Of a DNA stretch of 53,389 bases, positions 16,640 through 21,197 are shown piece after piece. The notes under the pieces were generated by a model. It made no database searches. It worked only from the letters and a program-made list of their open reading frames with translations, and was not told the origin of the DNA. The first letter of the stretch is position 1. Every line of letters begins with the position of its first letter. The position numbers were made by a program, and so were the translations under genes. The DNA lies in contig WFUT01000060.1 in NCBI GenBank assembly GCA_015484845.1, positions 1 through 53,389 on the forward strand, written 5' to 3'. Origin of the DNA: Desulfobulbaceae bacterium. Its GTDB lineage: Bacteria > Desulfobacterota > Desulfobulbia > Desulfobulbales > Desulfobulbaceae.

Positions 16640-17680
16640 ATGAAGAGAGTGCTACTGACGCTGGTATTCTTCGGCCTTGCGACCATGACAGCGGTGCCGG
16701 TTATGGCCGCGGACCAGGGCCACGGCGCCGCGGTCGCTGCAAAGACCGCCCGGGCCGCCGACGCCGCGCCTGACCAGGCCAAGGCCGACCAGGCCCCTGC
16801 CACGGACCAGGCCCCTGCCGCCCGGCAAAAGACCGCGGACAAGGCCACGGCAGCAGGCAAGGCCGCTGCCACCGGGGCTGGCAGGGGCGAGACGGCCGCT
16901 GCCGCGGCAAAGCCGGCAGCCGGGACAGCAGCAACGCCGGCCAGGGCCGCCGAAGAGCTGAAACCGGTGCCGCTGACCAACAGCGACTGCGTCAAGTGCC
17001 ACTTTGATATCGCCAAGGACCTGGACGCCCATGGCGGCGCCCACCTGGAGGTCAACTGCACCGGCTGTCACCAGGAGCATCCGCCCTCGGGCACCAATGC
17101 CATTCCGAGCTGTTCCGAATGTCACGACCCGGGCGAGAACAAGCATTTCGCCACCAAGGGGTGCACATCGTGCCATAACCCCCACCACCCGCTCGAGCTC
17201 AACTTCACCACCGTGGCCGCAACAAAGCCCGCCTGCCTCACCTGTCACCCGGACAAGGGCAAGGAGATGGCGGCCCATCCCAGCGCCCATGCCGAGCAGG
17301 ACTGCAACTCCTGTCACAACCAGCACGGCCTGGGCCCGGGGCAGTACCAGACCTGCCTGGACTGCCACGAGGGCCACACGCCCGACATGACCATCAAAGA
17401 CTGTCTCAAGTGTCACAAGCCGCACAGCCCCACCGATATCACCTATGGCGATGATATCCCGGTGGCCTTCTGCGCGGCCTGCCACGATGACATCGCCGCC
17501 ACCCTGGCCAAGTCCGGCACCAAGCACAGCGAGATGCGCTGCGTGGAGTGCCACGACGGTCGTCACGGCAAGATCACGCCCTGTGTTGACTGCCACGACC
17601 AGCCCCATGACCCGTACATCCACAAGAAGTTCCCCGAGTGCCTCACCTGCCACCGGGATCCGCACAACCTGGCCCGCTGA
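16640..17680 (+). CDS. Secreted dodecaheme c-type cytochrome
   Basis: A 346-residue protein with 12 CXXCH haem c sites. Signal peptide about residues 1-23 (ending VMA). Residues about 24-110 form a very Ala/Lys/Gln-rich, low-complexity linker with no haem. The haem region follows: one CXXCH (CVKCH), an eight-haem block, then three closing sites (CVECH, CVDCH, CLTCH). Many extra His residues (HNPHHP, HEGH, HKPH) can be distal ligands. The type is the doubled-CXXCH/cytochrome c3-like family; function is electron transfer in the periplasm or outside the cell. GGGGGAG lies just upstream of ATG 16640; an in-frame start at 16553 is less likely because the signal peptide begins here. Confidence 0.9.
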   Translation: MKRVLLTLVFFGLATMTAVPVMAADQGHGAAVAAKTARAADAAPDQAKADQAPATDQAPAARQKTADKATAAGKAAATGAGRGETAAAAAKPAAGTAATPARAAEELKPVPLTNSDCVKCHFDIAKDLDAHGGAHLEVNCTGCHQEHPPSGTNAIPSCSECHDPGENKHFATKGCTSCHNPHHPLELNFTTVAATKPACLTCHPDKGKEMAAHPSAHAEQDCNSCHNQHGLGPGQYQTCLDCHEGHTPDMTIKDCLKCHKPHSPTDITYGDDIPVAFCAACHDDIAATLAKSGTKHSEMRCVECHDGRHGKITPCVDCHDQPHDPYIHKKFPECLTCHRDPHNLAR

Positions 17681-17721
17681 CACGCGGCTGCAAACGCCCC
17701 GTGCAAGCTGACGGCAATCCG

Positions 17722-17743
17722 CCCCCGGCCATCCGGCCGGGGG
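17722..17743 (+). other. GC-rich hairpin between cytochrome genes
   Basis: CCCCCGGCC (17722-17730), loop ATCC, GGCCGGGGG (17735-17743): a 9-bp all-GC hairpin in the 145-base gap between the first two cytochrome genes. There is no T-run, so it is more likely a mRNA stability or processing element than a terminator. Confidence 0.45.
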
Positions 17744-17825
17744 TGCCGGGCCCGCGGAGGAGCGCAGGCCCGCACAGGTGATACAAACAAAATCCAGGTC
17801 CGCCCAGGGACCAGAGGACGTAGGG

Positions 17826-19103
17826 ATGAAACGATTCGGAATACACATCGGCCTGTGTTGCCTGATCCTGCTGTGGTCCGGCACCCTGGCCATGGCAGAG
17901 GTGAAGCCCCTGCCGCTTACCGGCGCAGACTGCATCAAATGCCACTTCGACGAGGTCAAGACCGTCCACAGCCAGGATTCGGCCCACAAGAACGAGCTTG
18001 CCTGTCTCGACTGCCACGAGGGCCATCCGCCCAAGGGCAAGGCCGTGATTCCCAAGTGCTCCAGGTGCCACGACCCGGCCGACAACCCCCACTTTTCCAC
18101 CCCCGGCTGCACCAGGTGCCACAATCCCCATGCCCCCATCGTGACCGACTTTGACAGCCTGGGCGACGCCAAGCCGGTCTGCATCACCTGTCATACCGAT
18201 ATCAGCAAGCAGATGCAGGAGATCCCCAGCGCCCACTCGGAGCAGGACTGCACCGCCTGCCACCACCAGCACGGGCTCGCCAAGGGCCAGTCGGACACCT
18301 GCACCGACTGCCACGAGAAGCACGCGCCCGAGCTGACCCGCAAGGACTGCCTGCGCTGTCACCGGCCGCACCAACCCAACCGCTATACCTGGGACGCGGA
18401 GATCCCCCCTGCCCTCTGCGGTGCCTGCCATGGCGATATTGCCAAAACCTTTGCCAAGAACGGCGCCGCCCACAGGGAGAACCTGGCCTGCACCGACTGC
18501 CACCAGGCGCATCCGCCGCGGAAGGAAAACGTCATACCATCCTGTTCACAGTGCCACGATCCTGCCGAGAAGAAGCACTTTGCCATGAAGAACTGCACCG
18601 GCTGCCACAACCCGCACGAGCCGAAGAAGATCGACTTCAGCGAGGTCAAGTCGGTGCGGCCGGTCTGTCTCTCCTGCCATCCGCAGATCGGCAGGGACAT
18701 GAAGAAACATCCCAGCGCCCACGCCGGGCAGGAGTGCAACAAGTGCCACCGGATCCATGGCCGGCACCTGAGCTGCCTTGACTGCCACGAGGGCCACGAT
18801 GCGTCGATGAAATACAGCGACTGCCTCAAGTGCCACCGGCCCCACTACCCCATGCCGCCGACCTTTGCCAAAAAGGTGGCGCCAAGGCTCTGCGGCGCCT
18901 GCCACGAGGCCGAGTACAAGGCCCTGAAGAGTGACAACAAGAGCAAGCACGGCAAGTTGCAGTGCGTCTACTGCCATACCAGCAGGCACAAGGTCATCCG
19001 CAAGTGCCGCACCTGTCACGGTGAGCCCCACGACGCACCGCTGCACCGGAACTTCCCGGACTGCCACAAGTGCCACGGCAACCCGCACCACCTGAAAAAA
19101 TGA
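17826..19103 (+). CDS. Secreted 20-haem c-type cytochrome
   Basis: A 425-residue protein with 20 CXXCH sites, one haem per about 21 residues. Signal peptide about 1-24 (ending LAMA). Haem 1 (CIKCH) is followed by two copies of an eight-haem block: hems 2-9 from ACLDCHEGH to CGACHGD, and 10-17 from ACTDCHQAH to CGACHEA. Both copies share PP..IP.CS.CHDP, HF...C..CHNPH, PVC..CH, SAH..Q.C..CH and DCL.CHRPH. Three closing sites (CVYCH, CRTCH, CHKCH) match the end of the preceding 12-haem protein. It is thus that protein with one block added and without the Ala-rich linker. Likely a periplasmic or extracellular electron conduit. ATG with GAGG eight bases upstream. Confidence 0.92.
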   Translation: MKRFGIHIGLCCLILLWSGTLAMAEVKPLPLTGADCIKCHFDEVKTVHSQDSAHKNELACLDCHEGHPPKGKAVIPKCSRCHDPADNPHFSTPGCTRCHNPHAPIVTDFDSLGDAKPVCITCHTDISKQMQEIPSAHSEQDCTACHHQHGLAKGQSDTCTDCHEKHAPELTRKDCLRCHRPHQPNRYTWDAEIPPALCGACHGDIAKTFAKNGAAHRENLACTDCHQAHPPRKENVIPSCSQCHDPAEKKHFAMKNCTGCHNPHEPKKIDFSEVKSVRPVCLSCHPQIGRDMKKHPSAHAGQECNKCHRIHGRHLSCLDCHEGHDASMKYSDCLKCHRPHYPMPPTFAKKVAPRLCGACHEAEYKALKSDNKSKHGKLQCVYCHTSRHKVIRKCRTCHGEPHDAPLHRNFPDCHKCHGNPHHLKK

Positions 19104-19143: not shown

Positions 19144-20010
19144 ATGAGGAGAAAGCAAGCGAGACTATCCGCACTGGTCACGGTCCTGCTGCTGGCAGGC
19201 TGCCTGGTGCTGCTGCCCCCGGCTCCCGCCGCGCAGGCCGCGGACAAGGATCCCTACAGCCAGGACGTCCAACCCCTGCCCCGGGGGATGACCACCGTCG
19301 ACTGCGCCCGCTGCCACTTCGAGATCTTCACCACCATCAAGACGGGCAGGGGCGCGCACCGGATTCCGTGCCGCCAGTGCCACAAGACCTTTCACAGCTT
19401 CCGGCACGGCCTGCGCTACCAGGATGTCCTGCCGCACTGCACCGACTGCCACGATCACCCCCACGGTGACGCCGACCGGATGACCGCCTGCAAGCAGTGC
19501 CACCAGAAACCGCATGCCCCCCTGGCAAGCCTGGACATCGAACAGCTGCAGCCTTTCTGCGCCGACTGCCACGGCGACCAGGCGGCCCAGCTGGCGGACC
19601 ATCCGGGCAGTCACTCGAAACTCGCCTGCAACGACTGCCACAGCGAACGCCACGGCAATATCCCCAGGTGCAGCGAGTGCCACGAAAAACCGCACACCAC
19701 CTATGTCAGCAACAAGGGATGCACGGCCTGCCACCCGGCCCACATGCCGCAGGAAGTCCGCTACGGCACCAGGATCGACAATGCCATCTGCGCCGGCTGT
19801 CACACCGGCATCGGCGCCAGGCTGAAGGCGGGCAGGTCGGCCCACTCCATGTTGCGCTGCGTCTTCTGCCACTCGGAAAAACATGGCACCATCCCGTCCT
19901 GCCAGGACTGTCATGGCATACCGCACTCGGCCGGCATCCTGCAGGGCTTTTCCGACTGCCTGGACTGTCACGGCGATCCCCACAAGCTCTCCCTGGGAGC
20001 GCCCCACTGA
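19144..20010 (+). CDS. Secreted dodecaheme c-type cytochrome, three tetrahaem units
   Basis: A 288-residue protein with 12 CXXCH sites. The N-terminus has a basic start and a hydrophobic core containing LLLAGC, a possible lipobox (Cys20), but hydrophobic sequence continues to an AQA site, so either lipoprotein or ordinary signal peptidase processing is possible. The haem region looks like three four-haem units ending in CH..PH pairs: hems 1-4, 5-8 (CADCH, CNDCH, CSECH, CTACH) and 9-12 (CAGCH, CVFCH, CQDCH, CLDCH). The last unit resembles the C-termini of the two previous cytochromes. GAGGAG precedes the ATG by three bases. It is 40 bases behind the 20-haem gene, so one transcript is likely. 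Confidence 0.9.
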   Translation: MRRKQARLSALVTVLLLAGCLVLLPPAPAAQAADKDPYSQDVQPLPRGMTTVDCARCHFEIFTTIKTGRGAHRIPCRQCHKTFHSFRHGLRYQDVLPHCTDCHDHPHGDADRMTACKQCHQKPHAPLASLDIEQLQPFCADCHGDQAAQLADHPGSHSKLACNDCHSERHGNIPRCSECHEKPHTTYVSNKGCTACHPAHMPQEVRYGTRIDNAICAGCHTGIGARLKAGRSAHSMLRCVFCHSEKHGTIPSCQDCHGIPHSAGILQGFSDCLDCHGDPHKLSLGAPH

Positions 20011-20090: not shown

Positions 20091-21197
20091 ATGCGCAAGC
20101 TTGGTATAGCTCTCGCCCTGGTACTGGTACTCGCCCTGGTGATCATAGGCCTTGTCTACCGGCAGATCAGCTACAGGATCTGCTGGAACTGCAGTGGTGA
20201 CGAGTATTACAACCGCGCGATCCAGTACGCCTGCAGCGATGTCCCCAAGTACCGCCGGACGGCGCTGAACTTCCTGGACCAGGCCGCCCGGCAGGACCAG
20301 CTCCAGGCCCTGCGCTTCCTGGCCGAACTGTACATGGACAAGCTGCCGCCATCCTACCAGCCGCAGGACAGGGAGCAGCTCACCTGCCTGCGCCGCGACA
20401 TCAGGCCCGACAGGAACAGGGCCATCTCCTCTTTCCAGGCCATCATCGACAGGCTCGAGGGGCAGCCGGACGGCGACCCGACACTGCTGGGCGATATCGG
20501 CCTGCTCTACCTCCACTCGGTAATGCCCAGCGACGATCCCGCCGAGCAGGCCAGGAAATGGTTTGCCAGGGCCGCTGCCGAGGGAAATTACCCGGCCATG
20601 GTCCAGCTGGCCCGGTTTGCCGATGCCAGGGGGGACTATGCCGAGGCCATGAAATGGTTCCAGCAGGCGTCCTCCAACACCCTGGACCCGCAGTCACCGC
20701 TGATGGTGGGCGACTACTTCTTCTACGGCAAGGGAGTGCCGGTGGATTACCGGAAGGCAAAGACCTGGTACCGGAAGGCGCTGGCTGCGGCGGAAAAGGT
20801 TGCCGCCGGAAAAAGCGACGAGGAGAAGAACAGGATCCTGGCCCCGCCCCGGATCCGGCTGGACCTGGTGGAGCGCCGGCTCGCCGGCCAGGGGCAGCGA
20901 CAGCGGGTCACCGTCACCTACCGGCTGGAGGGTACCTTCAGGAACTACTCGGTATTTGTAAAGAAACATCCCGACCGGCCCGTGGGAACGGTGGTCAACA
21001 GGGACGGGGTGATCACGGCCAGGATGAACGGCGACATCGACTTTCTCACCCCGCCAGAAGAGATGGAGAAAAGCGGTTTCAGTTCCATGACCAGGGGCAT
21101 GCACTGGGTGCTTTCAACCTATGCCGCCCACAGTTACAAGGATCCTGACAGCCTGCACTTTGTCTACGTGCTCAGCAGGTGGAAGTCGCGGCAATAG
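20091..21197 (+). CDS. Membrane-anchored Sel1/TPR-like repeat protein
   Basis: A 368-residue protein of unknown function. Residues 4-24 form one transmembrane helix or uncleaved signal anchor. A non-haem CWNC pair follows at about 31-34. The middle (about 40-245) has Sel1-like repeats: ALRFLAELYMDKLPP, LLGDIGLLYLHS, ARKWFARAAAEGNYPAMVQLARFADARGDYAEAMKWFQQA, GDYFFYGKGVPVDYRKAKTWYRKAL. The rest (about 265-368) is a beta-rich region without a recognised domain. It lies 80 bases behind the cytochromes in the same direction and may be an assembly or scaffold protein for them. That role is inference from position only. Confidence 0.75.
   Translation: MRKLGIALALVLVLALVIIGLVYRQISYRICWNCSGDEYYNRAIQYACSDVPKYRRTALNFLDQAARQDQLQALRFLAELYMDKLPPSYQPQDREQLTCLRRDIRPDRNRAISSFQAIIDRLEGQPDGDPTLLGDIGLLYLHSVMPSDDPAEQARKWFARAAAEGNYPAMVQLARFADARGDYAEAMKWFQQASSNTLDPQSPLMVGDYFFYGKGVPVDYRKAKTWYRKALAAAEKVAAGKSDEEKNRILAPPRIRLDLVERRLAGQGQRQRVTVTYRLEGTFRNYSVFVKKHPDRPVGTVVNRDGVITARMNGDIDFLTPPEEMEKSGFSSMTRGMHWVLSTYAAHSYKDPDSLHFVYVLSRWKSRQ

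What the first reader, a model, noticed from the sequence alone, without database searches (positions are those of the whole stretch)
16640..19103. 20-haem cytochrome is the adjacent 12-haem cytochrome with an eight-haem block duplicated
By counting CXXCH sites, the first protein has 1 + 8 + 3 = 12 hems and the second 1 + 8 + 8 + 3 = 20. The two eight-haem blocks of the second (about 18001-18431 and 18487-18906) share the same order of local patterns (PP..IP.CS.CHDP; HF...C..CHNPH; PVC..CH; SAH..Q.C..CH; DCL.CHRPH; CGACH), which also match the single block of the first. Together with the third gene the cluster encodes 44 hems. A modular lengthening of a haem chain by eight units next to its parent is a striking way to build a longer conductive protein and could be part of an undescribed periplasm-spanning or extracellular electron path.
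Basis: partly seen in the sequence, partly recalled or inferred. Interest (0 to 1): 0.72.

Follow-up and report, generated by a model that had tools for sequence, protein, structure and literature searches.

The report
Twenty-haem cytochrome lengthened by eight-haem block
A sulfate-reducer-type bacterium carries a conserved four-gene cluster whose second gene encodes a 20-haem electron-carrying protein; that protein is a 12-haem protein with one extra eight-haem segment, added long ago by recombination at a point that can still be located, but the neighbouring 12-haem gene is its relative, not its parent.

Summary
The three genes encode 12, 20 and 12 CXXCH sites. Blocks 18003-18488 and 18489-18962 of the 20-haem protein B align in register with each other and with A's single block, far above shuffles and unrelated multihaem proteins. 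The repeat unit is a tetrahaem module: A is abc, B is ababc. The joint is visible: B's ninth haem is haem-9-like upstream and haem-1-like downstream.

"Copy of the adjacent gene" and "recent" are not supported. B's two blocks (45% identical) differ more from each other than either does from A (55%, 52%), and every orthologue checked has both blocks. The nearest 12-haem version of B is not A but a B-type gene at the same position of the same A-B-C-D cluster in a distant genome.

Four-haem length changes recur in the family: gene C has 8 or 12 haems, C-like relatives 16, and an independent 20-haem relative arose by tetrahaem duplication.

Most likely a periplasmic bis-His haem wire. Close 12-haem relatives sit beside a roughly 700-residue barrel-like outer-membrane protein, and this genome has a homologue elsewhere. 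The physiological role is inferred, not shown.

The parts
16640..17680 (+). Gene A: 346 aa, signal peptide, Ala/Pro-rich linker, 12-haem cytochrome (three tetrahaem modules a-b-c)
   Evidence: Shine-Dalgarno-like stretch before ATG
17057..17539 (+). Eight-haem block of A (haems 2-9)
17826..19103 (+). Gene B: 425 aa, signal peptide, 20-haem cytochrome (modules a-b-a-b-c)
17931..17945 (+). Haem 1 of B; its head region is closest to the 12-haem B of L108 in all 8 orthologues tested
18003..18488 (+). First eight-haem block of B (haems 2-9 plus linker)
18432..18488 (+). Inferred recombination joint: upstream side haem-9-like, downstream side haem-1-like, spacing 24 as between haems 1 and 2
18489..18962 (+). 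Second eight-haem block of B (haems 10-17 plus linker)
18963..19103 (+). Last three haems of B (18-20)
19144..20010 (+). Gene C: 288 aa, 12-haem cytochrome of the same family; the orthologue has 8 haems in five genomes of one clade
20091..21197 (+). Gene D: 368 aa, N-terminal membrane anchor plus Sel1/TPR-type repeats; always downstream of C

Best explanation
B is a secreted (periplasmic) electron wire made of five tandem tetrahaem modules, ababc. It arose long ago from a 12-haem cytochrome (abc). An in-frame crossover joined the region just after haem 9 of one copy to the region just before haem 2 of another, inserting an extra eight-haem stretch. Shown: module order, the joint, its antiquity, and conservation in one gene cluster with a 12-haem paralogue (A), an 8- or 12-haem paralogue (C) and an anchored Sel1-repeat protein (D). 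Inferred: every haem is bis-histidine ligated, the protein has no catalytic site, and A, B and C together carry or store electrons in the periplasm between inner-membrane dehydrogenases and an outer-membrane or periplasmic acceptor, with D as an assembly or docking scaffold. The extra eight haems would lengthen the haem chain from roughly 90 to 150 angstrom by the published length-per-haem relation.
For: Counts and blocks; controls; joint. Conserved ABCD order in nine loci outside the window; flanks differ outside the window's genus. All orthologous 20-haem B proteins checked carry the two-block layout; L084 lacks part of its end because of an assembly gap. A 12-haem B in the same operon position in L108, with head, first block and tail closest to B. 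Repeated four-haem size changes: C 12 versus 8 with its joint right after the first CXXCH of a module, 16-haem C-like proteins, an independent 20-haem protein whose modules 3 and 4 are 66% identical. Conserved free His at least one per haem: 21 for 20 haems in B, 13 for 12 in A. Peptide-minimised: 2.24 kDa per haem in B; such cytochromes fit a linear length-per-haem relation in which about 27 haems span a roughly 200 angstrom periplasm (PMC7096707). Sequence match to MtrA (6R2Q chain A, E 1e-7) and the small tetrahaem cytochrome. Closest 12-haem relatives lie next to a barrel-like protein of about 700 aa in L110, L111 and L112; a homologue sits in a cytochrome-rich contig of this genome.
Against: No porin, quinol oxidoreductase or extracellular cytochrome is in the cluster. 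The barrel family was not found in G014, G042, G106, G108 or G590, which have the cluster (G108 and G590 are each 98% complete). Structure prediction of B failed (mean pLDDT 39), so a continuous haem chain through the joint is not shown. The A model is good (pLDDT 90) but finds no strong fold match, and haems could not be placed. No expression data.
Confidence: 0.6

Rival explanations
1. Fusion or capture rather than self-duplication: the second block of B came from a different 12-haem cytochrome by recombination between paralogues.
For: In the octahaem trees the second block lies outside the group of A, first block and 12-haem B (A plus first block 86/91; A, first block and 12-haem B 94/95).
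Against: Grouping the two B blocks with the 12-haem B is not rejected (p-AU 0.277; two blocks alone 0.336 and 0.166). The second-block branch is long, which can push it outward. The tail of B, downstream of the second block, goes with the 12-haem B.
Confidence: 0.35
2. Copy of the adjacent gene A: B is A with its own block doubled.
For: A is adjacent and each B block is more like A than like the other B block.
Against: Head, first block and tail of B are closer to the 12-haem B of L108 than to A, and A and a B-type gene coexist there as separate genes. So the present A is not the parent of B.
Confidence: 0.08
3. The 12-haem B of L108 is a secondary loss: the cluster's ancestor already had the 20-haem form and one lineage deleted eight haems.
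For: In the A tree L108 pairs with L069, whose B has 20 haems (91/91). With only haems 1-6, the 12-haem B nests inside the first-block group (84/68).
Against: With the whole block it lies outside all first blocks (99/97) and grouping it with L069 has p-AU 0.034. All wider A-like relatives have 12 haems, so a gain of eight must have happened at some point either way.
Confidence: 0.4
4. The cluster is an electron store or promiscuous periplasmic shuttle (haem capacitor) rather than a directed wire.
For: No membrane electron-transfer partner in the cluster; high haem density; Geobacter periplasmic nanowire cytochromes have been discussed as capacitors (PMC10138318).
Against: Strict conservation of module order and operon partners over several families suggests specific partners.
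Confidence: 0.3

Closest known systems
MtrA/DmsE decahaem cytochromes of the Mtr conduit (6R2Q; TIGR03508)
   Same: Best sequence match of B among solved structures; peptide-minimised chains; MtrA itself is thought to come from a duplication, and the small tetrahaem cytochrome superposes twice on it (PMC7198977)
   Different: 12 and 20 haems instead of 10; far below the family cut-off (60.9 and 40.9 against 192.2 bits); no MtrB beside it
GSU1996-type periplasmic nanowire cytochromes of Geobacter
   Same: Single-chain haem wires built from tandem repeated domains (PMC10138318)
   Different: Those are four trihaem domains with one His/Met haem each; here the module is tetrahaem with enough conserved His for all-bis-His ligation
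PCC3/PCC4 clusters of iron oxidisers
   Same: Very-many-haem periplasmic cytochromes with repeat regions (median 21 haems in PCC3); three periplasmic multihaem cytochromes in PCC4 (PMC5566968)
   Different: Those carry a porin and a five-helix inner membrane protein in the cluster; haem counts in PCC4 are 4, 5 and 10; here the fourth gene is a single-anchor Sel1 protein
Oet/Pcc porin-cytochrome conduits of sulfate reducers (PMC10553843)
   Same: Sister 12-haem pairs in L110 and L111 lie beside a barrel-like protein, as a porin-cytochrome conduit would
   Different: The ABCD cluster itself has no barrel; homology to OetA, OetB or OetI was not tested

Membership tests
Doubled-CXXCH / cytochrome c7-c3 superfamily (PF09699, PF14522, PF14537) | Score above curated cut-off | tested here: met
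   A and B exceed all three cut-offs; C exceeds PF14522 and PF14537
DmsE/MtrA decahaem family (TIGR03508) | Curated score 192.2 | tested here: not met
   B 60.9, A 40.9, C 32.1 bits
DmsE/MtrA decahaem family (TIGR03508) | Ten CXXCH sites | tested here: not met
   12, 20, 12 sites
MtrAB-type conduit | MtrB/PioB barrel encoded beside the cytochrome | tested here: not met
   No such gene beside the cluster; only a sub-threshold PF11854 hit of 15.3 bits elsewhere in the genome
GSU1996-type trihaem polymers | Three-haem repeat period | tested here: not met
   Haem spacing repeats every four sites
HmcA hexadecahaem cytochrome (NF045713) | Model match | tested here: not met
   Not among matches of A, B or C at E 0.001
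Porin-cytochrome conduit in general | Outer-membrane barrel plus cytochrome in one cluster | tested here: not met
   Absent beside A-D; barrel-like protein present beside 12-haem relatives in L110, L111, L112; homologue at G000:C82
MtrA-like fold | Extended haem chain with STC-like tetrahaem units | tested here: inconclusive
   Top Foldseek row is the small tetrahaem cytochrome but at E 1.2; no strong match; haems not placed
A-B-C-D cluster described here | Four co-directional genes in the same order | tested here: met
   Present in L046, L067, L048, L049, L050, L083, L084, L069 (with near-duplicate L068) and L108
A-B-C-D cluster described here | All haems bis-His ligated | not testable with these tools
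   Enough conserved free His exist but ligation needs structure or spectroscopy

The most novel reading that the evidence does not exclude
The A-B-C-D operon encodes a dedicated periplasm-spanning haem conductor, not previously described, whose reach is tuned over evolution by adding or deleting tetrahaem modules (12 to 20 in B, 12 to 8 in C) through recombination at module-start positions, and which hands electrons to one of several outer-membrane partners encoded elsewhere.
Probability: 0.25. Interest if true: 0.72.

Novelty: new variant of a known kind. Interest (0 to 1): 0.52.

Why it matters
Multihaem cytochromes are known to be modular, but worked examples in which the joint, the unit and the short and long states can all be read from living genomes are few. 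Here one gene family offers 8, 12, 16 and 20 haems built from the same tetrahaem module, with 12- and 20-haem forms of one protein at the same operon position. That makes a direct test possible of what extra haem-chain length does to electron transfer, and it gives a sequence-based way to date and orient such changes.

Tried and rejected
Structure prediction of B from nine orthologues gave mean pLDDT 39 and was not used. The model of A's core (58 sequences) is confident, but Foldseek and VIA-align gave no strong match; that absence is no evidence of a new fold. The class-level genome search repeated the order-level one and added nothing. The first set of control windows included near-identical orthologues and was replaced (redone). 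Literature searches for haem-chain lengthening by internal duplication in this group found no direct description in the held library; that is weak evidence because most subscription papers are missing. MtrB/PioB in this genome was considered and is below threshold. Recent duplication was rejected on divergence and distribution. No plus-strand terminator-like site lies between A and D, which fits an operon but proves nothing.

Full report
WHAT IS THERE. Three co-directional genes, A (16640-17680), B (17826-19103) and C (19144-20010), encode proteins with 12, 20 and 12 CXXCH sites and no longer-spaced variants. D (20091-21197) follows, a protein with an N-terminal membrane anchor and Sel1/TPR repeats. 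Each start codon has a purine-rich Shine-Dalgarno-like stretch upstream, and no plus-strand terminator-like site lies between A and D, so the four genes are probably one operon. A and B score above the Pfam cut-offs for doubled-CXXCH, cytochrome c7 and c3-type families, and C for the latter two. A, B and C lie far below the DmsE/MtrA decahaem cut-off.

THE UNIT IS FOUR HAEMS. Haem spacing repeats every four sites. Cut that way, A is modules a-b-c, C is three modules, and B is a-b-a-b-c. In pairwise comparison A1 matches B1 and B3, A2 matches B2 and B4, A3 matches B5 and C3, while out-of-register pairs score much lower.

CHANCE AND CONTROLS. The B-B alignment score is 12 standard deviations above shuffles that keep every Cys and His in place; A-B scores are 16-17 above.

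THE JOINT. Profiles of the haem-1, haem-5 and haem-9 regions were built from 36 twelve-haem relatives. In the window's B, the region around haem 9 scores 32.9 bits as haem-9-like against 1.9 as haem-1-like, while the nine residues before haem 10 score 7.2 as haem-1-like against -2.9 as haem-9-like. The spacing is 24, as between haems 1 and 2 of B. In the orthologues the upstream side also scores highest as haem 9 (weakly in L083 and L084, and below zero but still highest in L069) and the downstream side as haem 1. This is what a crossover between the haem-9 region of one copy and the haem-1 region of another leaves. It places the joint at about 18432-18488.

AGE AND DISTRIBUTION. Full-length or near-full-length 20-haem B is found in three genomes of the window's genus, three of other genera in the family (60-62% identity) and two of another family of the order (55-57%). 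Two further near-identical MAGs labelled Deltaproteobacteria have it at 51%. The same A-B-C-D order occurs in all these loci, although the flanking genes differ outside the window's genus. The two B blocks are only 45% identical, less than either is to A. The duplication is therefore old, not recent. The second refuting condition (unrelated haem counts in close homologues) is also not met.

A IS NOT THE PARENT. A phylum-wide search found a genome (G590, locus L108) with the same four-gene cluster in which B has 12 haems. Its block groups with B's first block (99/96), not with A. Its head region is the best match for all eight B orthologues tested, and its tail for six of eight. So B has its own 12-haem counterpart at the same operon position, and A is a sister paralogue beside it. 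Two points stay open. First, the second block of B falls outside A plus first block plus 12-haem B in the best tree (94/95), but grouping the B blocks with the 12-haem B is not rejected (p-AU 0.277), so self-duplication and capture from another 12-haem gene cannot be separated. Second, L108 may be ancestral or secondarily reduced: the A tree pairs it with L069, which has the 20-haem B (91/91), whereas the block tree puts it outside, with p-AU 0.034 against pairing with L069. When only haems 1-6 are used, it nests inside the first-block group (84/68).

SIZE CHANGES RECUR. Gene C has 12 haems in the window's genus, in L069 and in L108, but 8 in G042, G011, G014, G106 and G108. In the aligned sequences the missing stretch begins just after the fifth CXXCH and ends just after the ninth, that is, one module between two module starts. 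C-like relatives with 16 haems follow A-like genes in L060, L090, L101 and L102. In G379 (L109) another 20-haem relative has modules 3 and 4 at 66% identity, the highest in that protein, an independent tetrahaem duplication. Recombination between repeated modules explains all of these; the events were inferred, not observed.

WHAT IT PROBABLY DOES. A and B have signal peptides and C an N-terminal export signal (sequence inspection, not a predictor). B carries 21 fully conserved free histidines for 20 haems, four per module (five in the last), and A carries 13 for 12, enough for bis-His ligation throughout and leaving no obvious catalytic haem. Protein mass per haem is 2.24 kDa in B. Published work shows a linear relation of haem number to chain length in such peptide-minimised cytochromes, with about 27 haems needed to cross a periplasm of about 200 angstrom (PMC7096707). 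By that rule A would be about 90 and B about 150 angstrom long; this is an inference. Sequence search of solved structures gives MtrA and the small tetrahaem cytochrome as nearest; MtrA was itself proposed to stem from a duplication (PMC7198977).

A LINK TO OUTER-MEMBRANE BARRELS. The closest outside 12-haem relatives, in L110 and L111, are followed by a 12-haem C-like gene with a lipobox-like start and a protein of about 700 residues with an export signal, beta-rich character and a C-terminal aromatic residue; L112 has a related protein beside its 12-haem gene. This looks like a porin-cytochrome arrangement, but the barrel is judged from sequence pattern and a weak Pfam match (L112 only), not from structure. 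A homologue of that protein is encoded at G000:C82:26170-28209, among 26-haem, 16-haem, 10-haem and five-haem cytochromes. That suggests, but does not show, that A-B-C could feed an outer-membrane conduit encoded elsewhere in the genome. The barrel family was not detected in five of the genomes that carry the cluster, so it is unlikely to be the obligatory partner.

COMPARISON WITH KNOWN KINDS. Modular single-chain haem wires are known: GSU1996 is four trihaem domains (PMC10138318), PCC3 cytochromes carry many haem repeats (PMC5566968), and larger counts up to 86 haems are reported (PMC12133095). What is added here is a conserved operon with a tetrahaem unit, a located joint, and 12- and 20-haem forms of one protein at the same operon position. 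I rate it a new variant of a known kind.

LIMITS. The named relatives are MAGs and most of the held assemblies are fragmented; L084 has an assembly gap inside B. Trees rest on 73-238 columns rich in invariant Cys and His. The structure of B was not obtained. No expression or biochemical data exist here.

Noticed in passing
G000:C82:12580-31374 (L053): Cytochrome-rich contig of the same genome: 26-haem, 16-haem, 10-haem, 8-haem and several five-haem proteins (one begins its haem region with a CHTMHNS-type motif) around a barrel-like protein of about 717 aa; looks like an extracellular electron transfer locus.
   Followed up: partly
L109:5677-6930 (-): Independent 20-haem cytochrome in another family of the phylum, built by tetrahaem rather than eight-haem duplication (modules 3 and 4 are 66% identical).
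   Followed up: partly
L110:1445-3589, L111:7619-9697, L112:3305-5488: Family of barrel-like proteins of about 700 aa beside 12-haem cytochromes, with essentially no Pfam or NCBIfam name; homologues in this genus, G011, G241, G256, G220 and weakly G071.
   Followed up: partly
window:21746-22471; L062:8508-9260; L054:10357-11136: An RNase-PH-like gene lies close to gene D in the window and also close to 12-haem pairs at other loci in two other genomes; meaning unknown.
   Followed up: no
L051:4515-6418 (G000:C155): A second pair of 12-haem cytochromes of the same family elsewhere in the window's genome, conserved as a pair in several genomes of the family.
   Followed up: partly
L094:1285-4416 and L099:7611-10861: 12-haem pairs next to a histidine kinase, a sigma-54 response regulator and a porin-like gene, suggesting regulated expression of the family in those genomes.
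   Followed up: no
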